A stretch of DNA of 64,000 nucleotides from IMG/VR virus record IMGVR_UViG_3300020172_005639, positions 1 to 64,000 of that record, one strand, 5' to 3'. The notes under the pieces were generated by a model that was given only the letters and a program-made list of their open reading frames with translations, was not told the DNA's origin and searched no databases. The DNA comes from a virus. Shown here piece after piece: positions 39,866 through 58,034 of the stretch (positions within the stretch are counted from its first letter, which is position 1; every line of letters starts with the position of its first letter). The translations under genes and the position numbers were made by a program.

Positions 39866-41257
39866 ATGCGAAACATCTACACTGAATTCTTGGACAAGGT
39901 AAAAAAAACCGATTTGGATATTGCGATCATAGGCGACGCTATGGTCGATGAGTATAGGCAAGTAGACATCAAGGGCATTTCCCCAGAGTTCCCGATCCCC
40001 GTCATGCGCGCACACGGCGAATCGCGCCTGCTTCCCGGTGGAGCAGCAAACGTCGCATATCAATTTGCAGGTTTCGGCAAGAAGGCCCCGCTGTATGCGT
40101 TTGTGGACTCGGAGGCTTCGACCGTGCTGGGTCAGTGCGGCGTCGACTTGAATCCATCACATGAGATTCCAACTCGGATACCTAGAAAGCAGCGTTTTTA
40201 CTGCGGCGACTTCCCTCTGACTAGGCTTGACATGGAGCAGGATGGCTACGGCCTTGTGCCCGAAGTACTTTGCCAGACTGCGAACGTTCTGTTCAGGTCG
40301 CTGCTGGACTATCGGTGCGTGATCTTTTCGGACTATGACAAAGGCGTTTTAAGGTATGCCACCCCAGAGCTGATACGGCGTTTCCCCATCTCAATCGTTG
40401 ACCCCAAGAACGGCAACCTTGAGCGATGGAGGGGCTGCACGGTCTTCAAGCCCAACGAGGCCGAGGCCTTGAGGCTGAGTGGCAAGAAGTGCGTTGTCGA
40501 GGCCGGAAAATACCTGAGCTCGTTTTTGGGCTCCAGCGTTGTGATCACGCAGGCCGGCAAGGGGGTCATGGTTTTCTGCGAAGGGCGCGACCCTGTCGTG
40601 GTGGCACCGCCCAGCAGGCTCGGTCGGCCCGAGTCAGTCATTGGCGCAGGCGACTGCTTCGTTGCTTTCCTGGCCATGTCTCTCTGCTGCGGATTCGACC
40701 TGCTGGAATCCGTGGAGATCGCATTCAGGGCGGGCACTATCTACGTCCGCAACAAGCACAATGAGCCTTTATCCCCGAGGAGGTTTCTGGCCGACGTCGA
40801 TCCCCTCGCTTCAAAGGTGATTGCAGAGGAGGATATACCACGAATTTTCTCGCAGCGCGACTACAGGCTGGTCTTCACCAATGGGTGCTACGATATGCTG
40901 CACCGTGGCCATGTGCACGGATTCCAGCATGTCCAGTCAACAGGGAGGCTGATTGTTGCCGTTAACGACGATGAGAGCGTTAGGGGTCTCAAGCCTGGCA
41001 GGCCCGTCCAGAGTCTTGAGGAAAGGTTGGAGATGGTGGCTTCTTGCCAGTTTGTGGACTTCGTGATTCCATTCAGCGATCCGACCCCTGAGCGGCTCAT
41101 TAGGCTGATCATGCCTGATGCGGTAGCAAAGGGCGAGGAGTATGCGGAGAGCGAGATAGTCGGGTTCGGCATAGCGCCTGAAATAATCAGGATACCCATG
41201 CTGAAGGGATTCTCCACGTCATCCCTGCTGGACAGGCTTTCGGCCAGAGCGAGATGA
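39866..41257 (+). CDS. hldE: Bifunctional heptose-7-phosphate kinase / heptose-1-phosphate adenylyltransferase
   Basis: 463 residues, close to cellular HldE (about 477). The N-terminal ribokinase-like domain shows IGDAMVDEYRQV, KGISPEFPIPV, PGGAANVAYQFAG, FSDYDKGVL, FKPNEAEAL and VIGAGDCFVAFL. The C-terminal nucleotidyltransferase shows VFTNGCYDMLHRGHVHG, VAVNDDESVRGLKPGRPVQS and AKGEEYAES. It makes the precursor ADP-D-glycero-beta-D-manno-heptose (needing GmhA, GmhB and the epimerase HldD from the host). With the GT9-like genes it points to phage-directed heptose addition. Confidence 0.93.
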   Translation: MRNIYTEFLDKVKKTDLDIAIIGDAMVDEYRQVDIKGISPEFPIPVMRAHGESRLLPGGAANVAYQFAGFGKKAPLYAFVDSEASTVLGQCGVDLNPSHEIPTRIPRKQRFYCGDFPLTRLDMEQDGYGLVPEVLCQTANVLFRSLLDYRCVIFSDYDKGVLRYATPELIRRFPISIVDPKNGNLERWRGCTVFKPNEAEALRLSGKKCVVEAGKYLSSFLGSSVVITQAGKGVMVFCEGRDPVVVAPPSRLGRPESVIGAGDCFVAFLAMSLCCGFDLLESVEIAFRAGTIYVRNKHNEPLSPRRFLADVDPLASKVIAEEDIPRIFSQRDYRLVFTNGCYDMLHRGHVHGFQHVQSTGRLIVAVNDDESVRGLKPGRPVQSLEERLEMVASCQFVDFVIPFSDPTPERLIRLIMPDAVAKGEEYAESEIVGFGIAPEIIRIPMLKGFSTSSLLDRLSARAR

Positions 41258-41926: not shown

Positions 41927-42112
41927 ATGAAGACTTTTGAGGAATTCCTTAACGAGAGGGCCAAACCCCCTGGCTCCTTCACAAAGGCAAACAGCCCGAA
42001 CCGACTTCTGGCCAGGGGCGCATCGAGGCCTGCGTCCCCAACCAGACCCAAGTACGCTGGGCTGGCCATCACGAAAGTCTACCCTGTCGCTAAATTCGGC
42101 CGCACACTCTGA
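41927..42112 (+). CDS. Small tagged protein (61 aa)
   Basis: The frame begins MKTFEEFLNERAKPPGSF, an almost ideal F-x-x-F-L tag, followed by a Pro/Arg/Ala-rich basic body and no other feature. It follows the HNH gene by 8 bp. Small late proteins of this make-up are often packaged internal proteins, so this is a candidate for the tag's function as a capsid-targeting signal. Confidence 0.55.
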   Translation: MKTFEEFLNERAKPPGSFTKANSPNRLLARGASRPASPTRPKYAGLAITKVYPVAKFGRTL

Positions 42113-42992: not shown

Positions 42993-43346
42993 GTGCAGAA
43001 GAGGTGCAATTTGCCGAATTTCTCTTTCTCATGCAAGAAGTGTTCTGCCAACTACTCGGACATAGTTCCGTTTGACCCGACGGGCAAGTACAAGGATGTG
43101 GCTTGCCCACGGTGCAAAAGCAAATCGAAGGTCAAGCTTATGACTACTTGCTCCTTCGCATTCGCTCAGCCCGAGGGGACTGACAAGTGGAACAGCGACT
43201 CGGCTGGTCATGACTATAGGTTCAAGCACAAGCTGCCTCAGGTGATTGAGGAGCGTAAGAACGCAGAACTCGCAAACCAAGGCGCGCTACCTTACAACCA
43301 GATAGACGATCTCGGCGACGACACTAACTGGGGTGACGTGAAGTAG
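42993..43346 (+). CDS. Zinc-ribbon protein (FmdB-like), 117 aa
   Basis: Starts at a GTG. CKKCSANYSDIVPFD and CPRCKSKSKVKLM are two C-x2-C knuckles 25 residues apart, the zinc ribbon seen in FmdB-type small regulators and phage transcription or head-assembly factors. The C-terminal half is acidic and disordered. It ends just before an intrinsic terminator. Its partner is unknown. Confidence 0.65.
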   Translation: MQKRCNLPNFSFSCKKCSANYSDIVPFDPTGKYKDVACPRCKSKSKVKLMTTCSFAFAQPEGTDKWNSDSAGHDYRFKHKLPQVIEERKNAELANQGALPYNQIDDLGDDTNWGDVK

Positions 43347-43371
43347 TGGTCGATATGATTAAATTTTTAAG

Positions 43372-43398
43372 AACCTAGCCTCACAGGCTAGGTTTTTT
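43372..43398 (+). terminator. Rho-independent terminator before prkA
   Basis: AACCTAGCC (43372-43380) pairs with GGCTAGGTT (43386-43394) around TCACA, followed by more T to 43398. It isolates the PrkA-YeaH-SpoVR genes from upstream transcription. A TATAAT follows at about 43411 as a possible -10 for the prkA transcript. Confidence 0.88.
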
Positions 43399-43455: not shown

Positions 43456-45534
43456 ATGATCAGCGTATTCAAGAAAGTCGTCGGCGGGTTTGACCGAGCA
43501 TCGTTCCTTAACCTGAACACAGAGATGAGCTTCGCTGAGTATCTGGAGTTCTGCTATCAGAAACCTAGGCTGCTGCGAAACTCCTGGCAGATTATCTTCG
43601 ACATGATCACCGAGAAGGGCAGCGTGACGGTCGAGGAGTATCGCAAGACATACCAGAATTACAAGTTCTTCGACGATCCTGATTGCCCGATCATTGGCTT
43701 GGTCCCCATGAAGGACGCCATCGTCAAGTTTATCAAGGGGGCCGCAGGAGGCTACGGAACGGAGAAACGCATACTGCTGCTGCATGGCCCCGTGGGCAGC
43801 TCGAAGTCAACTTTGTGCAGACTAATTAAGCGCAGCATGGAGAAATACTCAAGGACCGACGCAGGGGCTTGGTATTCCTTTAAGTGGGTTAACTTGCCAA
43901 CAGGCGCCGAGGGAATCTACACGGATTCCGAGTGCTTCTGCCCGATGCACGAGCAGCCCCTGAAGCTCTTGCCCATCGATCTGCGCCGTGGCGTCATGGT
44001 CGAGTTAAACGCCATCCATGAGAAGCAGGTGGTTGAGGAGAAGCGCGCAGACCTTTACACCCTGAAGTGCGAGGACGAGCTCGACCCGCTCTGCAAGAGG
44101 TTCATGAGTCTTCTTCTCAAGAAGTACGAGGGCGACCTCGAAAAAGTCCTTGAGAACCATGTTCGCGTCGTCCGCAAGGTCTACAGCGAGGCCGACCGCT
44201 GCGGCATCGCAACTTTCCAGCCGAAGGACGAGAAAAACCAGGACAGCACAGAACTCACTGGCGACCTGAACTTCCGCCAGATCGGCAACTTCGGCAGCGA
44301 CTCCGACCCGAGGGCCTTCAGCTTCGACGGCGAGTTCTGCGTAGGCAACCGTGGGATCATCGAGTTCATTGAGGCTCTCAAGCTCGATACCGCCTTCCTC
44401 TACGACCTCCTTGGCGCAAGCCAGGAGCAGAGCATCAAGCCGAAGAAGTTCAGCCAGGTCAGCATCGACGAGGCGATTATCGCTCACACGAATGACCCGG
44501 AGTTTCAGAAGCTCAAGAGCAACCAGTACATGGAGGCTTTCAGGGACCGGACCACCAAGATTGATGTCCCATACACGCTGAAGTGGTCCGAGGAGTTGAA
44601 GATTCTTGAGAAGGACTACGGCCCAGGCAAGGTGCGCCAGCACATTGCCCCCCACACCTTGGAGATCGCCGCCCTATGGAGCATCCTCACACGCCTCGAG
44701 GACGACAAGGACGGCAAGCTCTCACTTGTTGAGAAGGCCGAACTCTATGACGGCAAGCTTCTGCCTGGCTGGACTGAGGACTCCGTGAAGGAGCTCAAGG
44801 ACAAGTGCCCCGACGAGGGAATGCAGGGCGGGGTGAGCGTCCGATACCTACAGGACAAGATCAGCAACTGCCTGTCAAACAACCATGACTACGTCAACAT
44901 GTTCATGGTCCTCAACGAGTTGCGCGACGGCCTCGAACACAGCTCGCTGCTGACCAACAAGGAGCAGGTCAGCCGCTTCATCACCTGCATAGACCTAGCT
45001 CTGAAGAAGCTGACCGAAATCCTTAAGACGGAGGTGCAAAAGGCACTTGTGGGCGACGAAGAAGCAATCAAGAGGCTGTGCGCCAACTATATCGACAATG
45101 TAATGGCCTATATCTCCAAGAGCAAGATCAAGGACTTGATCACGGGCCAGGATCGAAAGCCTGACGAGAGACTGATGCGGGCCATAGAGGAGAAGATCCA
45201 GATTCCCGATACTGGCTGCGATGACTTCCGCAGGCAGATATCCTCTTTCATCGGGCACCTCGCCCATGAAGGCAAGAGCTTCCATTGGGACAGCAACCCG
45301 AAACTGCGCAAAGCCCTAGAGGCCAAGCTATTTGAGGATGTCAAAGACACCATCAAGCTGTCTGCTCTAAACGTGAGCGGAGCAACGGTCGTCGACAAGG
45401 ACATTCAAGAGAAGATCGATGCAGTCAAGACAAGGCTCATCAAGAAGTATGGCTACAACGAGCGCAGCGCCACGGATGTCCTCGATTTCGTCGGGGGCAT
45501 ATTCGCACGGGGCGACCTCGCCGAAGACGAGTAA
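43456..45534 (+). CDS. prkA: PrkA-family serine protein kinase / AAA+ protein
   Basis: 692 residues from the ATG at 43456 (GGGGG upstream); cellular PrkA/YeaG are about 630-645. [20 protein letters not shown] and [19 protein letters not shown] match the PrkA N-terminus. The P-loop is GPVGSSKS (111-118), followed by [20 protein letters not shown] and the HEQPLKLLP block typical of Prk[23 protein letters not shown] and [20 protein letters not shown] are further family signatures. In E. coli YeaG/YeaH and in Bacillus PrkA/YhbH/SpoVR act in starvation and stress responses; both partners follow here. Family assignment is confident; the effect on a host is unknown. Confidence 0.95.
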
Positions 45535-45546
45535 CAGGAGGCACCC

Positions 45547-45762
45547 ATGAACAATCCGTGGCTCATAAGCGCGTCCAAAAAGAAGATGTTTGAGGAGATC
45601 GACCAAATCGCCCTCAACATCTGGGGGCAGGACGGCACGCTCAGCGACTTTTTCGCGTCCCTGACTGACGAGCAGACTGATTTTCTCTTCGCCATGAAGA
45701 TTAAGGACTTCGCAAGCGACCCAATGGACCTGTCCTGCGGGTTTGAGCTTATACAACCGTGA
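45547..45762 (+). CDS. Small hypothetical protein (71 aa) inside the prkA set
   Basis: Sits between prkA and the next gene with a perfect AGGAGG ribosome-binding site. Sequence MNNPWLISASKKKMFEEIDQ, acidic and helical. It has no known relative that I recognise and may be a phage-specific partner of the PrkA module. Confidence 0.55.
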   Translation: MNNPWLISASKKKMFEEIDQIALNIWGQDGTLSDFFASLTDEQTDFLFAMKIKDFASDPMDLSCGFELIQP

Positions 45763-45769
45763 GGTCGAA

Positions 45770-46594
45770 GTGAAGCATAATCTGCTGCTGGGAAACTCCA
45801 AGGGCTACAGCCTCGGGCAAATCAGGAACTGGCTGGTCAGCGCAATCAGGCACAGGGGCTCCTACGACATAGGCCTGCTGCTCTGCGACAATGACGCCGA
45901 GATTCTAGACTTCTGCGACGCTCACGGAGTCTATGTCTACCCCCACTTCGACCTCGCCGTGAGCGGGCAGGAATACTACTTTGCAAGGTGCGGCCTAGTT
46001 TCTGAAACCTTGAAGAAGGCTTCGACCACATATGTTCTTGCGACAGATATTAGGGATGTGGTTTTCCAGCGCGACCCCTTTCCCGATTTTATGCAGGCCC
46101 TCAATTACAAGAAGGGCGTCCTTACATCCGAGAATATTCTCTTGAGGGACGAACCTTGGAACATTAAGGTCTATAAAGAGATATACGGCGAGGAGAGTTT
46201 TGACGCCGTGAGTGACAAGGAGGTAATCAACAGCGGCGTTGTTTTTGGCGAGTCTATGTTTCTTTCAGAGATATTTATGATGCTGCAGGACGCAGCTAGG
46301 ATGCCGAACGCATGGGCAGAGCAGCCAGTGCTCAACCATCTTTATCACCAGTTCAGCATCATCAGGGACAACTTCAGCCTCGCAAATGCTGACGACAGGC
46401 TGGTTGCCCATATCGGCGTTTCGGGTCCGACCAATTGGTGGGAGTCATGGAACTTCAAGAAAAATCTTATTCGGGGCAGATCCGAGATTTGCGACGGCAT
46501 AATCACCGACGCGCATGGTGAGGCTTTTGCCATAGCCCACCAGTATGACAGAGTGGATGAATGGCGTCAGCAGGTCGATGCCATTTACGCCTGA
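45770..46594 (+). CDS. Putative glycosyltransferase inside the prkA set
   Basis: Start taken at the GTG at 45770 after GAGGTC (274 residues); a TTG at 45743 is also open. LCDNDAEILDFCDAHGV and YVLATDIRDVVFQRDPF near residue 100 resemble GT-A enzymes with the D-x-R-D motif. INSGVVFGESMF, matching the N-x-G-x-x-x-G segment of GT34/LgtC-like enzymes, comes later, with AHIGVSGP at the end. It interrupts the prkA-yeaH gene order and may be an inserted cargo gene. Confidence 0.6.
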   Translation: MKHNLLLGNSKGYSLGQIRNWLVSAIRHRGSYDIGLLLCDNDAEILDFCDAHGVYVYPHFDLAVSGQEYYFARCGLVSETLKKASTTYVLATDIRDVVFQRDPFPDFMQALNYKKGVLTSENILLRDEPWNIKVYKEIYGEESFDAVSDKEVINSGVVFGESMFLSEIFMMLQDAARMPNAWAEQPVLNHLYHQFSIIRDNFSLANADDRLVAHIGVSGPTNWWESWNFKKNLIRGRSEICDGIITDAHGEAFAIAHQYDRVDEWRQQVDAIYA

Positions 46595-46626
46595 AGTCGC
46601 ACTGGGTTTTATTGAGGAATCAAAAC

Positions 46627-47832
46627 ATGTGTCCCAGAAGAATAGAAGAGGATCACAAAGACTTTCGCGACGTAGTTTCCGGGCGAATCCGTAGGGAGCT
46701 GAAGAAGTTCATCAAGAGCGGCCAGATAGTCCGTAAGAGGGGCAAGAACGGCAAGATCAGCATCAGCATACCGAAGATCGACATCCCCCACATAGTGTAT
46801 GGCTCAAACGGCGAGGGCGCAGGCCGTGGCCCAGGCCAGGAGGGCGACGTAATCGGGAAGGATCCGGCCAAAGGCAAGGGGAATGGCGCCGGACAGGGCG
46901 AGTCAGAGGGCATCATCATCAACTTGACCCTTGAGGATGTCCTCAAGTTCATGCAGGACGAGCTTCAGCTCCCGAACCTCAAGAGGAAGCCCAATGAAAT
47001 TTACGACGAGGTCAAGATCAAGTACAACAAGATCAGCCTCATCGGCCCCGAATCGCTGCGCCACAACCGCCGGACTCTGATGCAGACATTGAAGCGTCAG
47101 GCCGCCGAGGGAACGCTCGACAAGCTTGAACACGTGCCTGGGCTGAAGGATGCCGTTCGCATCCTCCGCCCCATCAGCGAGGACAAGAGGTACAGGCAGT
47201 ACAACGAGATCAAGCTTCCGTCCAGCAACGCCCTCATCGTGTTTGCGCGCGACGGCTCTGGCTCTATGGATGAGGCGAAGTGTTCCATCGTCAGCGACAT
47301 GGCTTGGTGGATAGACACCTGGATACGCAGGTTCTATGAACGGGTGGACAGGTTGTATGTCTGGCACGACAGCACGGCTATGGAGGTCGACGAGGACAAG
47401 TTTTACAAGTACAGGTTCGGCGGCGGCACGACTTGCTCCTCGGCCCTGAAGTTCATCACCAAGCAGTTTGAGAACAGGTACACGCCGGACAAGTGGAATG
47501 TCTATGTTTTCTACTTCACGGATGGCGAGAACTGGGGCGAAGACAACGAGGTCTTCATCAACACACTCGCAGACGATTTCAAGCCTCACGTGGTGAACTT
47601 CACGGGCATCACTCAGATACTCGCTGCCAGCTACTCTGACTCAGTCAAGTACCATGTGGATGAGGCGATCAAAAGCGGCAGGCTGGACGGTGACTGCGTC
47701 AGGACAGTATCGATCGGCGGTGCTACGGACAACAAGTCTGCGTGGTCTATTTCCTCGCTGAGCGAGGACAACCGTAACCAGCAGATCATCGAGGCGATCC
47801 AGCAACTTCTTGGGAACCCCGCAAGGGCTTAG
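46627..47832 (+). CDS. yeaH: YeaH/YhbH family (DUF444) protein with VWA-like domain
   Basis: 401 residues from the ATG at 46627 (GAGGAA upstream). PRRIEEDHKDFRDVVSGRIRRELKKFI is the DUF444 N-terminus, followed by a glycine-rich linker (GSNGEGAGRGPGQEGDV). FARDGSGSMDEAK gives a metal-ion-dependent adhesion (MIDAS) DxSxS site in a von Willebrand A fold, and FGGGTTCSSALKFI and YFTDGENWGED are further family motifs. It partners PrkA and SpoVR in bacteria. Confidence 0.94.
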   Translation: MCPRRIEEDHKDFRDVVSGRIRRELKKFIKSGQIVRKRGKNGKISISIPKIDIPHIVYGSNGEGAGRGPGQEGDVIGKDPAKGKGNGAGQGESEGIIINLTLEDVLKFMQDELQLPNLKRKPNEIYDEVKIKYNKISLIGPESLRHNRRTLMQTLKRQAAEGTLDKLEHVPGLKDAVRILRPISEDKRYRQYNEIKLPSSNALIVFARDGSGSMDEAKCSIVSDMAWWIDTWIRRFYERVDRLYVWHDSTAMEVDEDKFYKYRFGGGTTCSSALKFITKQFENRYTPDKWNVYVFYFTDGENWGEDNEVFINTLADDFKPHVVNFTGITQILAASYSDSVKYHVDEAIKSGRLDGDCVRTVSIGGATDNKSAWSISSLSEDNRNQQIIEAIQQLLGNPARA

Positions 47833-47841
47833 GGGGACGCA

Positions 47842-49440
47842 ATGTCCAGCAAGTTTTTCCATGGCTCCAGCGTGCTTTTGGGCGACAACACCGTTCCAGG
47901 GGTGCAGCTTACTCCAGAGCTGAAGAAGTACATACCGATGGTCCTCAAGGCATGCAAGGATTGGGGGCTGGATTTCAATCCGACCGTGGTTCAACTGCTG
48001 ACCTATGACGAGATCAGCGAGATCGCAGCATACGGGGGATTCCCTGTCCGCTTTCCGCACTGGTCCTTCGGCATGGAGTACGAAGAGCTCCAGCGTGGGT
48101 ACGAGTTTGGTGCTCACAAAATATATGAAATGGTTATCAATAGCAATCCCTGCTATATCTACAACCTTTCGAGCAACACACTTGCGGACCACCTCACCGT
48201 GGTTGCGCACGCCACAGGCCACAACGACTTCTTCAAGAACAACATACACTTTTCAGCGACCGACACGAACATGCTGAACAAGATGGCCAACCACGGCACA
48301 AGGATTAGGAAGTACATAGCCAGGTGGGGCAAGGAGAGGGTTACTGAGTTCCTTGACCACGTCATGAGGCTCGAAACGCTCATCGATGGTGCAGAGGCGT
48401 GGACTGAGCGAGTTGTAAAGGAACCGAACATTCGCGATGAGCGCAAGTACAGGAAGCCTCACAGGCTGACCGTCGACAAGAGCCGCATGTACATGGAGCC
48501 ATTCCTCAACACCTCCGACTTCCGGCGGCGCGAGAACGAGAGGGTTCATGAGAGAGACCTTGCCGACGAGTTGGGAATCTTCCGGAACCCAACCAAGAAC
48601 ATACTGGGCTTTCTGCGCGACAATGCCCCGCTCAAGCCATGGCAGGCCGACATAGTCGCCATGCTTTATGAGGAGGCGATGTACTTCTATCCGCAGCGCC
48701 AGACCAAGGTTCTGAACGAGGGGTGGGCCTCCACAGTCGACAGCGTCATCATGGCTGAGAACGGGCTGATCGGCTTGGGACAGTCAAGTCACGACTGCGG
48801 CATAGTCGAGTATTCCGCCCATAAGATGGGCGTCCTTGGCGGCAAGTACTCGACCAACCCCTACAAGCTGGGCTACTATCTCTTGGCAGATATCAGGGAG
48901 AGATGGGATAAGGGCCGTTTTGGCCAGGAGTGGGAGGAGTGCACGGACCTGCACAAGAAGGAGAACTGGGACCTCCCGACCAATCTGGGCAAGGACAAGA
49001 TTTTCGAGGTCAGGAAGTACTACGACGACCTAACCTTCATCCATGAGTTCTTCACCGAGGACTTCTGCCGCAAGCAGGAGTACTTCTATTGGAAGCACTA
49101 CCCGAACGGCGAATACAGGATAGAGAGCAGGGACTTCCTGAAGATCAAGCGTTCGCTGATGAGAAAGCACATCAACGGCGGATTGCCCGACATCAAACTT
49201 GCAGAGCCGAACTATGCGGGCCGTGGCATCATGATGCTCCAGCACGAACACGATGGCAGGGAGCTGTATCTGCCCTATATCTCGGATGTGCTTGCTTCCA
49301 TCAGGGCAATCTGGAATAATGACGTGATCCTCAGCACCGTCGCCGACTCTGGTGAGGAGGTCATCTTCTACGCCAGCGGCTCGATGCCAGAGCGCGTCGA
49401 TAGCATGACGAGGAAAAAGTTCGACGCAATGATGGGCTGA
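47842..49440 (+). CDS. spoVR: SpoVR/YcgB family protein
   Basis: 532 residues, GGGGG upstream. FPVRFPHWSFGMEYEEL, YIYNLSSNTLADHLTVVAHATGHNDFFKNN, KPWQADIVAMLYEEAMYFYPQ and NEGWASTVDS are the conserved SpoVR blocks, and length fits the family (about 470-530). In Bacillus SpoVR affects spore cortex formation; in E. coli YcgB is part of the YeaG/YeaH stress group. The enzymatic role is unknown in any host. It closes the trio. Confidence 0.95.
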   Translation: MSSKFFHGSSVLLGDNTVPGVQLTPELKKYIPMVLKACKDWGLDFNPTVVQLLTYDEISEIAAYGGFPVRFPHWSFGMEYEELQRGYEFGAHKIYEMVINSNPCYIYNLSSNTLADHLTVVAHATGHNDFFKNNIHFSATDTNMLNKMANHGTRIRKYIARWGKERVTEFLDHVMRLETLIDGAEAWTERVVKEPNIRDERKYRKPHRLTVDKSRMYMEPFLNTSDFRRRENERVHERDLADELGIFRNPTKNILGFLRDNAPLKPWQADIVAMLYEEAMYFYPQRQTKVLNEGWASTVDSVIMAENGLIGLGQSSHDCGIVEYSAHKMGVLGGKYSTNPYKLGYYLLADIRERWDKGRFGQEWEECTDLHKKENWDLPTNLGKDKIFEVRKYYDDLTFIHEFFTEDFCRKQEYFYWKHYPNGEYRIESRDFLKIKRSLMRKHINGGLPDIKLAEPNYAGRGIMMLQHEHDGRELYLPYISDVLASIRAIWNNDVILSTVADSGEEVIFYASGSMPERVDSMTRKKFDAMMG

Positions 49441-49441
49441 C

Positions 49442-49690
49442 ATGGAGGAAACTGACATGGAAGAGACTAATCTGCTCCTTACCCAGGAGTTCATCGCCTT
49501 CTCCGACAAGATAAAGTCTATCTTTGAAGAGAAAAGCTCTAAAAAGGCGGAACTCAAGGCCTTTTTTGAGAAGATCACCGCCGAGATTAAGGGGCTAGAC
49601 GCCAAGGCCAAAGCCGCCGAGGACGATTTTAACGCTTGGAAGAAGTCCCAGTCGGCCAACCAAGAGGCTGCCCCCAAGACCAAGTCCTGA
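49442..49690 (+). CDS. Small coiled-coil protein (82 aa)
   Basis: Begins 1 bp after the spoVR stop. A charged helix with heptads (FSDKIKSIFEEKSSKKAELKA) and a Gln/Ala/Lys-rich tail. Unknown family; coupled to spoVR on one side and the polymerase gene on the other. Confidence 0.55.
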   Translation: MEETDMEETNLLLTQEFIAFSDKIKSIFEEKSSKKAELKAFFEKITAEIKGLDAKAKAAEDDFNAWKKSQSANQEAAPKTKS

Positions 49691-49707
49691 ATGCCGTAAG
49701 GGCCGAT

Positions 49708-51105
49708 ATGCAGCCTAAGATAGTCGGCTTTGAGCACCTCCATCTTCACACCGATAACTCCCTCCTCGATGGTTACGGGATGGTGGAGGAGTATGCTCAT
49801 CGCGCCCCCAAGATAAACCAGAAGTTCCTTACAGTCAGTGACCACGGGATGCTGGGGGCAATCCCGAGGCAGATCAGGGCTTGCGAAAAGGCGTGCGAGT
49901 CTAAGGGCAAAGACGCCCTGAGTCCGATCTTTGCGTGCGAGCTCTATGTCAACAGCCTGCAGCCAGAATCTGACAGCCTAGATGACGTGAGGGCTTTCAT
50001 TTCCACTTTGGATGATTCGCAAAAGTCTAGGTTCAAGAGCAGCGCGCACCTTCTAGCCATCGCCTACAACGAAACGGGCTACAAGAACCTTGTCCGGCTT
50101 TCCTCCTGGGGCTGGACGAGGGGCTTCTATGGGCGGCCTCGAGTGAATCACGAGCAGCTCCTGAAGCACAAGGAGGGATTATTCTTCACGAGCTGCTGCT
50201 ACAACAGCGAGATAGGCCGTGCGTTCGACTCAGGCGGCGAGGAGCTCGGGTTCGACATGGTCGAGCGCTACATCGAGATGTTTGGCAAGGATCATTTCTT
50301 TCTTGAGATCATGCTGCTTGACTTCAAGAAGCAAAAACCCTATGACGCATTCATCATCAAGGCGCACCAGAAGTACGGACTGAAGGTCATAGTGACACAG
50401 GACGTCCACTACTGCAACAAGGAGGACAGCAAATATCAGAGGCTCATGCTGATGGTGCAGACCGGCAAGACCGTAAGGCAGATAGAGGAGGCGCTGCGCG
50501 AGAACAGCGGCTATGACGCGTTTGAGTTGCAGGACAGCAACCTTTGGATGAAGTCGGAGGAGGAGCTAAATGAGAAGTGGGTTTCCGACTACATGGAGGT
50601 CGTTCCCTATGAGGTCTTCCAGCAGGCAAAGCTCAACACCGTCGAAATCTGCAACAAGGCCAAGGGCGTTAAGCTTGATAGGAGCCTTAAGTTGCCGAAC
50701 ATACCCGACGCAGATGACATACTGCGCGACGAGGTAAAGAGCGGCTTCTTCGCTAGGCGACTTCCCAAGAACAAGGTATACCTTGACAGGCTCAAGGAGG
50801 AGCTGAGCCTGATCACGCGCAAGGGCTTCGCAAGCTACTTCCTTATCCAGAAGATGATGACAGACGAGGCTAGGCGCGTCTGCTCCGACATCATAGGTTT
50901 CGGCGATGGAACCCAGGCGGTCGGTCCCGGGCGTGGTTCTGCGGTAGGCGCGCTTGTCTGCTACTGCCTCGGTATTACTTCCGTCGATCCAGTTAGGGAA
51001 GGACTGCTCTTCAGCCGATTTCTTAGTGAGGCCAGAGGTGGTAGGTCGCTTCAGTTGAGGTTCAGGAACATGGACCCGCTGCCGCCCGATCAAGCATTCA
51101 GCTGA
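49708..51105 (+). CDS. dnaE: DNA polymerase III alpha subunit, N-terminal part (PHP and palm start)
   Basis: 465 residues from the ATG at 49708 (AAGGG upstream). The PHP domain has HLHLHTDNSLLDG (residues 10-22), SDHGMLGAI, FACELYV and VTQDVHYCNKED, and GPGRGSAVGALVCYCLGIT (406-424) is the palm DNA/nucleotide motif. The protein stops 40 residues later, before the catalytic D-x-D of DnaE. The missing part is on another gene at 58529. The last 25 residues (RSLQLRFRNMDPLPPDQAFS) do not match DnaE. It must pair with the second part to act as a polymerase, or serve as a separate PHP nuclease. Confidence 0.9.
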   Translation: MQPKIVGFEHLHLHTDNSLLDGYGMVEEYAHRAPKINQKFLTVSDHGMLGAIPRQIRACEKACESKGKDALSPIFACELYVNSLQPESDSLDDVRAFISTLDDSQKSRFKSSAHLLAIAYNETGYKNLVRLSSWGWTRGFYGRPRVNHEQLLKHKEGLFFTSCCYNSEIGRAFDSGGEELGFDMVERYIEMFGKDHFFLEIMLLDFKKQKPYDAFIIKAHQKYGLKVIVTQDVHYCNKEDSKYQRLMLMVQTGKTVRQIEEALRENSGYDAFELQDSNLWMKSEEELNEKWVSDYMEVVPYEVFQQAKLNTVEICNKAKGVKLDRSLKLPNIPDADDILRDEVKSGFFARRLPKNKVYLDRLKEELSLITRKGFASYFLIQKMMTDEARRVCSDIIGFGDGTQAVGPGRGSAVGALVCYCLGITSVDPVREGLLFSRFLSEARGGRSLQLRFRNMDPLPPDQAFS

Positions 51106-51917: not shown

Positions 51918-52746
51918 CTGACTCTCTCGGGTTGTCATGGAGTCCCGAAAAAGGGCAGCGAGCTATTTTAGCTTCGGCATTTGGCAAACCCTGATTGTTT
52001 AGTATCCTCTTCCGCTCCATGTAAAACGTGGTTGAGTCTTTGAAGGAATTCTCCTTCGGTTTTCCGAACTTTCTTTCGTTGTAACGCATCCAGTATTCAA
52101 AAACTTCATTTGACTCTTGGGTTTCCCTGTTCGCTTCTGACACTTCCAGTTTCCAATCCGATGAGTATGTCTCTCTCTGCATTGGTATCAACTGCGCTAT
52201 CGGGTTCGATTGGTCTCTTCTAAATGACACAGGCTCGTTGATCCTGTCGAAGACAAGGTTCATCCAGATGTCATATTGCATCCAGTCGGTTTCAAGAACT
52301 CCGTCCATGACATGGAAGGGCTGGGACTGGTAATTTATCGGGCTTTTGATGTGCAGGCACCATCCGGGTGGCGTCTTGAAGATCAGGCCGGTCCACAGCT
52401 GCAGAACGTTCGGCTCAACGCTGCCGAGAGACATCTTTGTCCTTCCCGTTCCGAACGGGCACCATTTGTCGGGGTTGACGCCGTCCTCGGGCCTCACCAG
52501 CCTTCGCACCAAGTGGGCGTCTTCGTCGGAGTTGTAGTACTCGTCTAGGAACCTGACCCCGAACTTTTCGCCCGTCCACACGACGTCAAAGTCGGATGGA
52601 GGGTAAAGCCACCAGCCAAGTGCGTTCACCGTGCTGAAGGGGTGGCACCACTTCACGCCCTCCTTATGGGCCGTACCGCAAAGGGTTTTCTCGGCCTTTT
52701 GTATGCGGCAGGCCTGTGGGTGCAGTTGGTAGGCCTGCAGCGACAT
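51898..52746 (-). CDS. Hypothetical protein, DUF6065-like (282 aa)
   Basis: The frame is open upstream across the tmRNA, so the start is taken at the ATG at 52746, whose A coincides with the tmRNA 3' end. CHPFSTVNALGWWLYPPSDFDVVW resembles the DUF6065 group of proteins found in polysaccharide and natural-product loci. FKTPPGWCLHIKSPINY lies in the middle. Its enzymatic role is unknown; its place beside a GT9-like gene fits the carbohydrate theme. Confidence 0.5.
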   Translation of the reverse strand: MSLQAYQLHPQACRIQKAEKTLCGTAHKEGVKWCHPFSTVNALGWWLYPPSDFDVVWTGEKFGVRFLDEYYNSDEDAHLVRRLVRPEDGVNPDKWCPFGTGRTKMSLGSVEPNVLQLWTGLIFKTPPGWCLHIKSPINYQSQPFHVMDGVLETDWMQYDIWMNLVFDRINEPVSFRRDQSNPIAQLIPMQRETYSSDWKLEVSEANRETQESNEVFEYWMRYNERKFGKPKENSFKDSTTFYMERKRILNNQGLPNAEAKIARCPFSGLHDNPRESDGQNMV

Positions 52747-53094
52747 GGAGTTGAGGGGAGTCGAACCCCTGTCTTCAGCGAGAGACATCCGGACCTCTAC
52801 ATGCTTTTTGCGTCGTTCGTTTTCTGTCTTCGGACCACGGCGCACAGAGGTCTCTAGACAACACCAACATAAACTATCGCCACGCAAGTTGGCAGCGCGA
52901 CGTTTGCGGGATTTACTTCGGGCCTTTGGGCGCTACCCGCTCGCCCCCTCGGCCCGTGGCAGACCTAAATTAGGCAGCCAGGGAAAGAACAGTTTCGTCG
53001 TTTGTTGCGACAGCCGAATTTTTAAGAGGCCATTCGGCCAACCTCTGCATGCCATCCGGGCGCCGCACCGTTGAATCGATACCGGAACAACCCC
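52746..53094 (-). ncRNA. ssrA: Transfer-messenger RNA (tmRNA), one-piece
   Basis: The ends pair as an acceptor stem: 5' GGGGTTG (53094-53088) with CAACTCC (52753-52747), then discriminator A at 52746. A T-arm GGGGTTCGACTCCCC precedes the 3' end. The 349-nt length matches bacterial tmRNA. CCA is not encoded. The tag reading frame gives ATNDETVLSLAA then TAA. Inverted repeats in the remainder (for example CTGTC/GACAG and GGACC/GGTCC) fit helices H5 and pseudoknots. tmRNA with SmpB frees stalled ribosomes; SmpB would come from the host, as no smpB was seen. Phage tmRNAs are known but uncommon. Confidence 0.92.
52970..53008 (-). other. tmRNA tag-peptide reading frame, ATNDETVLSLAA
   Basis: From the resume codon GCA (53008-53006) the frame reads 12 codons, ATNDETVLSLAA, then TAA. 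The final L-A-A is the usual degradation signal recognised by ClpXP/ClpAP and their adaptors, so tagged proteins should be degraded. The sequence begins with Ala, as do most tags (E. coli AANDENYALAA). Confidence 0.88.
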
Positions 53095-53170: not shown

Positions 53171-54088
53171 ATGGGATACATTTCATTTCACGAGTATGTG
53201 GACAAGAATAGAAAGTCCCCCAAGAAGGGCGACAAATCGCCAAAAGCAAAAACTGCAGTTGTCGCCGACTACGACGGTCCCATGAAGGATTCGCCTGAGC
53301 TTGCGAAAATGCCAGCCGATGCTGGCGGAGTCGGCCAGTCCGGCAAAGTCACCCCCTACAAAGGCGGGAAGGACGCCGCTGACCCCAACAAGGGCAAGCT
53401 GGCGGACGGTCTGGCAAAGAAGCCCGGCAAACAGGGAATGGGAGAGCTTGGAAAGCCAGAGAAGGTTCTTGGCAACTATCCCTCCATCAAGACATCTGAG
53501 TGGCTTGACACCCACAAGGGCCTCTCCCTCTCGGAGTTCGCCAAAAAGGTGAGGGAGGATAGGCTGTCTGGCATCAAGAACCCCAGTCGCGCCTACGAGT
53601 CCATCAAGGAAACTGTCGATGTCTGCAAGAAAAACGGCTCTTATGTGATGGACGTGGTTCTTGAGATGAGGCGCTCCGGACTGGCAGGCACCTTTGTTTC
53701 CGTTCTTGCCCAACAGCCAGAGTGCATAAACGTCATCGCCCACATGATGGAGAATGACGAGAGCTTCGCCCGAAAGCTCAGCATGGCTTTGGAAGAAATG
53801 GTCGGTCCTCCCGTGGGCGGCGACGAAGAGATGGAAGACGATCGCGAGGATATGGGCGGCGAGCCGGAGGAGGGCGACGAGCCTGTCGATGGCGAGGCCG
53901 GAGAGTCTGATGATGAGGACATGGAGGACGCTGAGGCCGAAGGAGAGGACGAGCTCTCCGATGACGGCGAGGGCGACGAGGTTGAGGATGCAGAGATGGA
54001 GGTTGAGGTTAAACCCTTAGAGAAGCCCATGAGCAAGGCCAAGGACAACCTCCAGAAGATGCTCATGAAGATGATGGGTCACCGATAG
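53171..54088 (+). CDS. Tagged late protein with very acidic C-terminus (305 aa)
   Basis: Begins MGYISFHEYVDKNRKSPKKG (F-x-x-Y tag), followed by a Lys/Gly/Pro-rich disordered region, a helical middle (TVDVCKKNGSYVMDVVLEMR), then a stretch of about 70 mostly Asp/Glu residues (EEMEDDREDMGGEPEEGDE) and a basic end (KAKDNLQKMLMKMMG). It is probably a scaffold or core protein of the prohead, given the layout; function inferred only. An intrinsic terminator follows. Confidence 0.6.
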   Translation: MGYISFHEYVDKNRKSPKKGDKSPKAKTAVVADYDGPMKDSPELAKMPADAGGVGQSGKVTPYKGGKDAADPNKGKLADGLAKKPGKQGMGELGKPEKVLGNYPSIKTSEWLDTHKGLSLSEFAKKVREDRLSGIKNPSRAYESIKETVDVCKKNGSYVMDVVLEMRRSGLAGTFVSVLAQQPECINVIAHMMENDESFARKLSMALEEMVGPPVGGDEEMEDDREDMGGEPEEGDEPVDGEAGESDDEDMEDAEAEGEDELSDDGEGDEVEDAEMEVEVKPLEKPMSKAKDNLQKMLMKMMGHR

Positions 54089-55502: not shown

Positions 55503-56471
55503 ATGCCATCGCCTGACAGTCGAATCTCAAGAATAAAAAGCATCATTAGGGGAAGCGGATTGTCTGAATATCAGGTTTTCCCAGTTTCCGATCAAGACAG
55601 GGCATCCGACAAGCTCACAGACTGCGTCCAGTGGACGTCTTCGGACAACAAGAATTTCATACCCACCTCTAGGACTGTTGAGAGACTGCCCCCTGGAACA
55701 TACGATATCGGCATGAACCAGGCCAATGGCCTGTTCTTCGAGAAGGTCCCGGTCTTGGAAAACGATCTGGTGGTCTTCCCGGAGAGCAACACCGAGAAGA
55801 TCGTCGGGGAGATTCGCCGCTTCTGGGATCGTGAGGAAATATACCGACGCCACAGGCTCGCCTTCAAGCGGGGTATACTTTTGTACGGCCCTCCGGGGTC
55901 TGGCAAGAGTTGCACGATACAGTTGGTCATGAACGACGTGGTGCAGAGGAATGGCATCGTCATTAACTTTTGCGAGGCCGACCTGTTTGTCGCAGGCGCA
56001 AGAAAGTTAAGAGAGATTCAGCCCGACACCCCCGTGGTCGTGCTGATGGAGGACGTAGACTCCATATTGCAAGACAACGAGGAGAGCTCCGTTCTCAATG
56101 TGCTGGACGGCGTGAACCAGATCGACAAGGTTGTGTTCCTCGCCACAACCAACTACCCCGAAAGGCTTGGCGAAAGAGTCATCAATAGGCCCAGCAGATT
56201 CGACAAGCGCTTTAAGATCGGATATCCAGACGAGAGGACGAGGCGGATATATTTTGAGCGAATCATCGGCGACAAGCTGATAGGCGATCTGAAAATCGAC
56301 TTGGACTTGTGGGTCAGGAAGACCGACGAGTTTAGCATGGCCCACCTTAAGGAGCTTTTTGTGGCGGTTGCAGTCCTTGGGGACGACTTCGACGAGGCAG
56401 TTGAAACTTTGATCTCAATGAAGGAAGATGGCATAAGCTCCAGAGATGATGCAAAGAAGATGGGCTTCTAG
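55503..56471 (+). CDS. AAA+ ATPase (BCS1/FtsH-like fold)
   Basis: 322 residues. Walker A GPPGSGKS near 132, Walker B VVLMEDVD near 182, sensor 1 VVFLATTNYPERL, and the arginine finger region NRPSRFDKRFKIGYPDE are classic AAA+. The N-terminal 90 residues are unrecognised. Bcs1- and FtsH-like AAA+ proteins remodel or unfold proteins; some T4-like phages encode a similar one of unknown role. Spacer upstream (55409-55502) has an imperfect stem (CGGACAGGCC..GGGCTTGTCCG) and no gene. Confidence 0.8.
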   Translation: MPSPDSRISRIKSIIRGSGLSEYQVFPVSDQDRASDKLTDCVQWTSSDNKNFIPTSRTVERLPPGTYDIGMNQANGLFFEKVPVLENDLVVFPESNTEKIVGEIRRFWDREEIYRRHRLAFKRGILLYGPPGSGKSCTIQLVMNDVVQRNGIVINFCEADLFVAGARKLREIQPDTPVVVLMEDVDSILQDNEESSVLNVLDGVNQIDKVVFLATTNYPERLGERVINRPSRFDKRFKIGYPDERTRRIYFERIIGDKLIGDLKIDLDLWVRKTDEFSMAHLKELFVAVAVLGDDFDEAVETLISMKEDGISSRDDAKKMGF

Positions 56472-56480
56472 GGGAGAAAA

Positions 56481-58034
56481 ATGGACATCGCCGTATATGG
56501 CTGGCATGACTCCTCTGTCTGCGTCAAGGACGGCGGGAAGTATTTTGTTTATGAGTTCGAGCGTTTCGTCAATAGGCGTTACGCAGTCATGACGCAGCAG
56601 TACCCTTCGGCCTCCCAACCGCAAGGCGAGGTCGTGGACTTTCTAAGCTACATCAAACACCGACACCGTGTCCCACACATTGACTTAGTTCTCTGCGACC
56701 AGATATTCGATTGCGACCATCACACTTTCAAGTCGGTCTTCAGCGTGGGGCAGTACCGCAAGTTTGGCCACCACTTAGCCCATGCCTATGGAGCCTACGC
56801 GCAGAGCCCATTTGAGAACTGCTTCGTAATATCCTATGACGGTTCAGGCGAGAATGAGGACGGCAGCAACAGCAGCTTCACGGTTTGGAGTGCAAGCCCT
56901 GATGGCATGGCTCTACTGAACGATTTTCAGCCATACTTCTCGCACAGCTTGGGCAACTGCTACCTAGCCCTAACCGTGCCGCTGGCATCAATAAAGAAGC
57001 CCGTAAAGGACCCAGACAACTACTATTTCTATGGCGGCAGCGCAGGCAAGCTCATGGGTCTGGCCGCATTCGGCACACCGGTAGAGGACTGGAAACCCCA
57101 CTTCCGTGCTTTTTTTGACGGAGGAAGAGTTTGCGATGAAAAGAGTTTGAGCGATAGCATAGGCATCGATATCGGGCGCTTCAACCACTTGCACGGGCAG
57201 ACTGAATTCGACTTTGCTGCCACTATTCAGTGGGCTTTTGAAGACAAGTTCTTTAGGATTTTTGACACCTTGGGCATTCCTCAAGGATCAAGCATTTGCA
57301 TGACTGGCGGATGCGCCCTGAACATAAATGTCAACCAGAGGCTGGCTGACATGGGATACAAACTGTTTGTTCCGCCAAATCCATCTGATTGTGGGCTGAC
57401 GCTAGGGATGCTAAGCGCGCATCATGGCGACAGGAATATCGACGTCACCTATTCAGGCTTCGATATTCTCGACCACGAAGCTCATGGGCTCCGCAGCGAG
57501 CCGATGGACATTGCCGGACTCGCTTCCAGTCTGTTTTTCCGTCGCAAGATAGTGGGCTTGATACAGGGCTCCTCTGAATGTGGGCCTAGAGCTTTGTGCA
57601 ACCGCAGTATAATTTGCTATCCAGATATTCCTATGCTCAAGGAGAGAATCAACTCTGACATCAAGTTCAGAGAGTGGTTCAGGCCTTTTGGAACCGTTGT
57701 GAGGGCAGAGGATATAGACAGGTTCTTCGTGAACGGCAGAGAGTCGAGATTCATGAGCTTATGTCCGACGCTTCGCAAAGAGTACCAGTTTCCCAGCATA
57801 ACCCACGTGGACGGCACCTGTAGGGTCCAAACCGTTTCGGCATCGCAAAATCCTCTGGCGCACTCTCTGCTTTCGGAACTGGAGAACCTCGGGGCTTTGC
57901 CGATTCTCCTCAACACCAGCTTCAACACGAAGGGCAAGCCAATTCTCACTAGGCTCTCTGATGCTGCTGCAACGCTTCACGAAACAAAGCTTGAAGGTTT
58001 CTATTACGAGGGCAGGTTTTATGAGAGGGCATAG
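56481..58034 (+). CDS. NodU/CmcH-family carbamoyltransferase
   Basis: 517 residues, GGGGAGA upstream. N-terminal ASKHA/actin-like motif VYGWHDSSVCV, then GHHLAHAYGAY, ISYDGSGENEDGSN, GGSAGKLMGLAAFG, MTGGCALNINVNQRLAD and the Carbam_trans_C motif SSECGPRALCNRSIICYP. These enzymes transfer a carbamoyl group from carbamoyl phosphate to a hydroxyl of sugars or natural products. With PyrB this gives two enzymes using carbamoyl phosphate. Likely role: O-carbamoylation of a phage-made glycan. Confidence 0.9.
   Translation: MDIAVYGWHDSSVCVKDGGKYFVYEFERFVNRRYAVMTQQYPSASQPQGEVVDFLSYIKHRHRVPHIDLVLCDQIFDCDHHTFKSVFSVGQYRKFGHHLAHAYGAYAQSPFENCFVISYDGSGENEDGSNSSFTVWSASPDGMALLNDFQPYFSHSLGNCYLALTVPLASIKKPVKDPDNYYFYGGSAGKLMGLAAFGTPVEDWKPHFRAFFDGGRVCDEKSLSDSIGIDIGRFNHLHGQTEFDFAATIQWAFEDKFFRIFDTLGIPQGSSICMTGGCALNINVNQRLADMGYKLFVPPNPSDCGLTLGMLSAHHGDRNIDVTYSGFDILDHEAHGLRSEPMDIAGLASSLFFRRKIVGLIQGSSECGPRALCNRSIICYPDIPMLKERINSDIKFREWFRPFGTVVRAEDIDRFFVNGRESRFMSLCPTLRKEYQFPSITHVDGTCRVQTVSASQNPLAHSLLSELENLGALPILLNTSFNTKGKPILTRLSDAAATLHETKLEGFYYEGRFYERA

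What the first reader, a model, noticed from the sequence alone, without database searches (positions are those of the whole stretch)
43456..49440. PrkA - YeaH - SpoVR gene set carried by a phage
All three members of the bacterial PrkA/YeaG, YeaH/YhbH (DUF444) and SpoVR/YcgB group lie together and in order, full length, with intact P-loop, DxSxS metal site and SpoVR blocks, bounded upstream by a terminator. In bacteria this set is tied to starvation, stress and sporulation, and its biochemistry is poorly known. Two extra genes (71-aa protein and a glycosyltransferase-like protein) sit between prkA and yeaH. A phage that keeps the entire set probably uses it to act in slow-growing or stressed hosts, to phosphorylate host or virion proteins, or to build a protein assembly during infection.
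Basis: partly seen in the sequence, partly recalled or inferred. Interest (0 to 1): 0.9.

Follow-up and report, generated by a model that had tools for sequence, protein, structure and literature searches.

The report
Phage-owned PrkA-DUF444-SpoVR operon
A lineage of uncultured giant phages carries its own old, intact copy of a three-gene bacterial stress set (an ATP-driven motor, a partner protein and a probable metal-binding protein); the set is kept under strong selection and gives a new way to ask what these poorly understood genes do.

Summary
prkA (43456-45534), the DUF444/yeaH gene (46627-47832) and spoVR (47842-49440) lie in order, intact, after a terminator, on a 120,522-bp virus record. 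They are not a recent pick-up. In all three trees the phage genes form one clade (SH-aLRT 99-100) apart from bacteria. All 67 relative groups with enough sequence keep all three genes in the same order. dN/dS is 0.025-0.10, and the P-loop, the MIDAS and the SpoVR His/Glu residues do not vary. The nearest record of the lineage is a 595-kb metagenomic phage. Phages gained the set at least three times: this lineage, ~640-kb phages with enteric-type YeaG, and Thermus phages (already annotated there, so the idea is not wholly new). Relatives carry full-length inteins in SpoVR (17 of 78 groups) and PrkA (2 of 78), one at the conserved NEGWA motif. The glycosyltransferase gene is a recent insert, not part of the set. 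The kinase reading is weak. The parts fit an AAA+ motor, a vWA adaptor and a putative metal-site effector. What the machine acts on (host physiology or phage proteins) is not settled. Three DnaB-selected contigs covering the expected site lack the set, so it is not proven universal.

The parts
43369..43397 (+). intrinsic terminator upstream of prkA
   Evidence: 13-pair stem and T run; 5.9 terminator-like sites expected in shuffles of the region, but this is by far the longest stem
43456..45534 (+). prkA: AAA+ ATPase with PrkA C-terminal domain, 692 aa
   Evidence: PF08298 and PF06798, E ~1e-75; phmmer match of 703 bits to the solved 'Serine protein kinase' 9xip
45547..45762 (+). 71-aa ORF, unknown; small operon member in this subclade
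   Evidence: present between prkA and DUF444 in 22 groups; no Pfam match
45770..46594 (+). glycosyltransferase-like gene, recent insertion, not part of the set
   Evidence: sub-threshold PF03407; absent here from L090 and the other relatives, 77% identical in L089 where its neighbours are 98%
46627..47832 (+). DUF444/YeaH-type vWA protein with complete MIDAS
   Evidence: PF04285 E 8.9e-59; AlphaFold model matches vWA/MIDAS domains, including NorQD and Rea1-MIDAS entries, prob 1.00
47842..49440 (+). spoVR: putative metal-site effector (H123, H127, E293), 532 aa
   Evidence: PF04293 E 5.5e-103; residues invariant in 70 phage and 49 bacterial sequences
42993..43346 (+). zinc-ribbon protein upstream of prkA, conserved neighbour
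   Evidence: in 54 of 79 regions; weak PF09723, below cut-off

Best explanation
A phage-owned operon encoding a three-part, ATP-driven protein-remodelling machine. PrkA is an AAA+ motor; the DUF444 protein is a vWA/MIDAS adaptor, as in NorQ-NorD or MoxR-vWA pairs; SpoVR is the effector, with a conserved His/His/Glu site that probably binds a metal. Shown here by sequence, trees and models: the parts, their conservation and their co-inheritance. Inferred: that they form one complex, and that SpoVR binds metal. Most likely (inferred) the phage makes the machine during infection to impose its own copy of the bacterial starvation/envelope-stress response, keeping the infected cell viable through a long giant-phage cycle. 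It probably does not act as a protein kinase.
For: All three genes kept together in 67 of 67 scorable phage groups and in the same order in 53 of the 80 closest bacterial loci. One phage clade in all three trees, SH-aLRT 99/100/100. dN/dS 0.025-0.032 and 0.075-0.10. Key residues invariant. The DUF444 model is a vWA domain, with vWA partners of AAA+ motors among the hits. At least three separate entries into phage genomes. In bacteria the set is tied to starvation, stress and envelope phenotypes: yeaG and yeaH in nitrogen starvation (PMC4664914), ycgB and yeaH in antimicrobial peptide resistance (PMC2375023). Conserved neighbours in this lineage are HldE-like, nucleotide-metabolism and replication genes, not recognisable virion genes.
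Against: No expression data and no known host. In Thermus phages Lalka8 and Lalka27a the set sits between portal/minor head and TerL, which suggests a virion role there. SpoVR has no significant match to any solved fold, so the metal site is a motif argument only, and the catalytic Glu of HExxH is absent. Three DnaB-selected contigs long enough to show the set lack it.
Confidence: 0.42

Rival explanations
1. Phage-protein processing machine: the AAA+/vWA/SpoVR module remodels or matures phage proteins (head, tail or replication proteins).
For: Lalka8 and Lalka27a carry the set inside the head/terminase module. Group 2.2 jumbo phages have a MoxR-vWA pair whose vWA protein is fused to a metallopeptidase, proposed for virion assembly and processing, and an archaeal virus uses MoxR-vWA for its tail (PMC7824862). 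The phage clade is phage-specific.
Against: In the window's lineage the neighbours are nucleotide-metabolism and replication genes, and the terminase gene is far away (536 kb versus 347 kb in LR756511). Bacteria keep the same set for their own use.
Confidence: 0.3
2. Host-takeover decoy: the phage proteins mix with the host's own PrkA/YeaH/SpoVR set and block a stress or dormancy programme that would limit phage growth.
For: Bacteria of many phyla carry orthologous sets; a yeaG mutation swept in one T7-resistant E. coli population (PMC10044975).
Against: All key residues are intact in the phage copies; a decoy would not need three full-length, apparently active proteins.
Confidence: 0.12
3. 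Protein kinase that phosphorylates host or virion proteins.
For: PrkA family name; early in vitro report cited in PMC13001217.
Against: Negligible kinase activity in purified Bacillus PrkA and no P-loop in its kinase-like domain (PMC13001217); the conserved P-loop here is the AAA+ one.
Confidence: 0.06
4. Recent, neutral passenger from a bacterial host.
For: The gene order is the same as in bacteria.
Against: Phage-only clade, strong purifying selection, kept across 78 phage groups.
Confidence: 0.02

Closest known systems
Bacterial PrkA/YeaG - YhbH/YeaH (DUF444) - SpoVR/YcgB set
   Same: Same three families, same order as in Myxococcota, Planctomycetota, Bdellovibrionota and Chloroflexota loci; all Pfam cut-offs passed.
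   Different: Phage-specific clade, at most 56% identical to bacterial PrkA; does not reach NCBIfam equivalog cut-offs for the enteric/Bacillus members.
Thermus phage phiYS40/TMA/phiLo/Lalka/MN1 sets
   Same: All three genes, annotated variously as SpoVR, serine kinase or AAA ATPase, and conserved bacterial or vWA protein.
   Different: Different order (DUF444-SpoVR-PrkA), 20-34% identity, separate entry (AU p 0.0099 against one clade with the giant-phage lineage; long branches).
~640-kb metagenomic phages LR756502, LR745206, LR756504
   Same: PrkA and DUF444 side by side in all three, SpoVR near by in LR745206 and LR756504 and elsewhere in LR756502.
   Different: Enteric-type YeaG, 61-65% identical to Enterobacter YeaG; AU test rejects one clade with this lineage, p 1e-110.
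MoxR-vWA(-metallopeptidase) pairs of jumbo phages (PMC7824862) and NorQ-NorD
   Same: AAA+ motor plus vWA partner, in the jumbo-phage case with a metallopeptidase.
   Different: PrkA is a different AAA+ family; SpoVR is a separate protein with no peptidase match.

Membership tests
PrkA family | AAA_PrkA domain plus PrkA C-terminal domain | tested here: met
   260.5 and 253.1 bits, cut-off 25
PrkA family | intact P-loop and conserved Arg | tested here: met
   G111, G114, K117, S118, R365 invariant in 73 phage sequences
PrkA family | protein kinase activity | not testable with these tools
   activity disputed in bacteria (PMC13001217)
DUF444/YeaH family | PF04285 over cut-off, MIDAS D-x-S-x-S...T...D | tested here: met
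   200 bits vs 27; D208, S210, S212, T267, D298 invariant; vWA fold in the model
SpoVR/YcgB family | PF04293 over cut-off, conserved HxxGH and NEGWA motifs | tested here: met
   345 bits vs 27; H123, H127, E293 invariant
enteric/Bacillus equivalogs (PRK15455, spore_yhbH, PRK11767) | NCBIfam equivalog cut-off | tested here: not met
   223 vs 576, 204 vs 468, 175 vs 679 bits: members of the families, not orthologs at that level
AAA+/vWA machines of the MoxR-vWA kind | AAA+ motor next to a MIDAS-vWA partner in one operon | tested here: met
   operon structure and vWA model; this is 'works like', not membership
AAA+/vWA machines of the MoxR-vWA kind | motor of the MoxR family | tested here: not met
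   PrkA, not MoxR, by Pfam
gluzincin metallopeptidases | HExxH with third ligand Glu and zincin fold | tested here: inconclusive
   HATGH has no catalytic Glu; LNEGWA resembles the M1 third-ligand motif from memory; only non-significant fold hits (SprT-like, IrrE); E. coli YcgB has one extra residue between the two His

The most novel reading that the evidence does not exclude
A lineage of giant phages has, over a long time, turned a bacterial stress module into its own protein-remodelling machine that acts on phage proteins or on the infected cell independently of the host copy, with SpoVR as an unrecognised metal-dependent enzyme whose active site is marked by the inteins that invade it.
Probability: 0.25. 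Interest if true: 0.8.

Novelty: new member of a known kind. Interest (0 to 1): 0.56.

Why it matters
The function of the PrkA/YeaH/YcgB set has been open for decades. Phages of at least three unrelated lineages have taken the whole set, and one lineage has kept all three genes together under strong selection, which says the three work as one unit and can work for a virus. Thermus phages with the set infect a harmless laboratory bacterium, so deletion tests are possible. Inteins at conserved sites point to functionally important sites in SpoVR and PrkA.

Tried and rejected
Enterobacter phage LAU1 as a further phage case: rejected, the record starts with yeaG at base 1 and the pair is most likely chromosomal flank of a prophage. 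Group I introns as the cause of interrupted spoVR: rejected, the inserts are in frame with Intein_splicing and LAGLIDADG domains. Glycosyltransferase as a functional partner: rejected. Anti-phage defence system: PADLOC gives nothing meaningful for the three proteins. SpoVR fold by Foldseek against PDB: nothing significant; SpoVR by sequence in PDB: none. A distant-alignment scan of genome contigs failed for want of conserved columns and was replaced by a closer alignment. Sigma-70 promoter in the region: none found. No paper linking inteins and SpoVR in the library; from memory a Chloroflexus SpoVR intein is listed in InBase, not checked.

Full report
Observation. The window is bases 1-64000 of a 120,522-bp virus record. 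prkA, the DUF444 gene and spoVR are intact at 43456-45534, 46627-47832 and 47842-49440 and pass the Pfam cut-offs by a wide margin. A strong stem with a T run stands at 43369-43397.

It is a phage. The window encodes phage-type DnaB helicase, SSB and UvsX-like recombinase. Nine large relative records share the DnaB (36-75% identity), and 6 of the 10 records searched hold a terminase large subunit. The nearest record in the phage collection is LR756511, a 595-kb metagenomic phage (DnaB 37.5%); the next best DnaB match is 28% identical. The lineage therefore has no close cultured relative in this collection. In LR756511 the set stands in the same order, with matching 112-aa and zinc-ribbon genes upstream and matching 303-aa and BCS1-like genes downstream (by reading the translations; zinc ribbon 33% identical).

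How widespread and how old. Scans of IMG/VR found 78 SpoVR, 374 PrkA (80 kept) and 84 DUF444 (80 kept) relatives. Grouped by shared sequence, 78 phage groups have PrkA and 78 have SpoVR. All 67 groups with at least 8 kb downstream of prkA hold all three genes on one strand. The best bacterial PrkA in one genome for each of 84,980 species is 56% identical; among the 80 best loci 53 have PrkA-DUF444-SpoVR in the same order. In each of the three trees the phage sequences form one clade, SH-aLRT 99, 100 and 100, next to a bacterial group of Myxococcota, Planctomycetota, Bdellovibrionota, Chloroflexota, Calditrichota and others. Between the window and its closest relatives dN/dS is 0.025-0.032 (L089) and 0.075-0.10 (L090) for the three genes. 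This is an old, maintained acquisition of a ready-made operon, not an accident.

Limits. Contigs chosen by DnaB alone, without looking at the set, gave 9 with the set, and 3 (G016, G020, G023) that cover the expected distance of 22-41 kb but lack it; the others end too soon (distances worked out by hand from those coordinates). In those three the set may be absent or elsewhere. One contig (L236) has broken frames in all three genes and L205 in PrkA, from sequencing error or decay.

More than one entry. PrkA of three ~640-kb phages is 61-65% identical to Enterobacter YeaG; a single clade with the window lineage is rejected (p 1e-110). Thermus phages have a third type, with order DUF444-SpoVR-PrkA; a single clade is rejected at p 0.0099, with a warning on long branches. 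A published Ralstonia jumbo phage, RsoM2USA, also lists SpoVR and PrkA (PMC8504454); it did not appear in the collection searched here. SpoVR has been counted as a sporulation gene in marine viromes (PMC8940887). So phage-borne copies are known as annotations; I found no paper in the library that treats the set as a phage system.

Inteins. In 17 of 78 phage groups spoVR is interrupted by one or two in-frame inserts of 337-441 residues that start with Cys and end in His-Asn (11 groups at N100|S101, 11 at A296|S297, 5 of them with both); prkA has one at F294|C295 in L034 and one at R286|A287 in L043. Pfam finds Intein_splicing and LAGLIDADG domains in the phage proteins tested. Site b cuts the conserved LNEGWA motif; six bacterial spoVR genes (Chloroflexota, Planctomycetota, Deltaproteobacteria) carry an intein at the same site, up to 45% identical to the phage ones. 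Inteins tend to persist in conserved sites of genes that cannot be lost (established knowledge), so this supports functional importance. The window's own copies are empty.

Parts and mechanism. PrkA: AAA+ motor; P-loop and Arg residues invariant; a relative is solved (9xip, 9xiq, 9xir; 30 chains in 3 entries; 703 bits). DUF444: the AlphaFold model (pLDDT 77.9) holds a vWA domain with complete MIDAS; hits include the NorQD complex and Rea1-MIDAS. SpoVR: model pLDDT 84.6, pTM 0.80, mostly helical; no significant match in PDB. H123 and H127 lie on one helix and E293 on another, in the motifs HxxGH and LNEGWA; the three do not vary in 119 sequences and are kept in Thermus phages and E. coli YcgB. 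The residue equal to H127 in E. coli YcgB was hit (H127Y) in an iron-selected population (PMC10044975). A metal site is a reasonable inference, not shown; the peptidase Glu of HExxH is missing. The complex itself is inferred from co-conservation and from AAA+/vWA precedents.

What it does in infection. In bacteria the set is linked to nitrogen starvation survival, stress and antimicrobial peptide resistance (PMC4664914, PMC2375023). In this lineage the neighbours are HldE-like, nucleotide-metabolism (ThyX by Pfam; DHFR- and ThyA-like by my reading) and replication genes. I therefore put first a role in holding the infected cell in a viable state through a long cycle (0.42). Second is a phage-protein processing or assembly role (0.30), because Lalka8 and Lalka27a keep the set between portal and TerL and because jumbo phages have a MoxR-vWA-metallopeptidase pair proposed for virion assembly (PMC7824862). 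Phosphorylation is unlikely (PMC13001217).

The glycosyltransferase gene. It is absent from this place in L090 and other relatives and is 77% identical in L089 where the flanking genes are 98%. It is an insertion, one of many glycosyltransferase-like genes in this window.

Verdict. A true, well-conserved phage operon. It is a new and well-supported member of a known gene set, with partial precedent in Thermus phages; the added facts are the deep phage-only clade, the repeated entries into phages and the inteins.

Noticed in passing
L100:14062-16959, L097:9526-12369, L091:13714-16482, L136:13303-16116, L151:13612-17670, L034:5545-8793, L043:5367-8780: Full-length LAGLIDADG inteins in phage SpoVR (two sites) and PrkA (two sites); one SpoVR site is shared with bacterial SpoVR inteins (L246, L249, L255, L271, L273, L318).
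   Followed up: yes
window 49636-51105 and 58529-61273: DNA polymerase III alpha is split into a PHP half and a polymerase half about 7.4 kb apart; halves of similar size are seen in many relatives, while LR756511 (L005) and L208 have one protein of about 1,180-1,190 aa. No intein was seen at the break.
   Followed up: partly
window 52743-53094 (-): Phage-borne tmRNA gene, tag DETVLSLAA (ARAGORN and Rfam).
   Followed up: no
window 55503-56471: BCS1-like AAA protein, conserved neighbour in LR756511; weak PADLOC IetA and TRIP13 matches.
   Followed up: no
window 39866-41257: HldE-like bifunctional heptose kinase/adenylyltransferase upstream of the set in 58 of 79 regions, with many glycosyltransferase-like and methyltransferase-like genes in the window.
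   Followed up: partly
window 56481-58034: Carbamoyltransferase gene (PF16861, PF02543).
   Followed up: no
window 41927-42112, 53171-54088; L005 18375-19286 (-): Proteins starting with short motifs like MKTFEEFLNE, which from memory resemble capsid-targeting peptides of T4 internal proteins; they could be packaged proteins.
   Followed up: no
L010 (MN688132, Enterobacter phage LAU1) 1-3308: yeaG and yeaH at the very start of a phage record, probably host flank of a prophage left in the deposit.
   Followed up: partly
G008 151373-152896 (L329): DnaB frame with one in-frame TAG; the set in the same record has none. Could be error or stop recoding.
   Followed up: no
G009 247136-247306: Stretch of 57 residues like the PrkA C-terminal part in a 532,729-bp relative contig that ends before the expected place of the set.
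   Followed up: no
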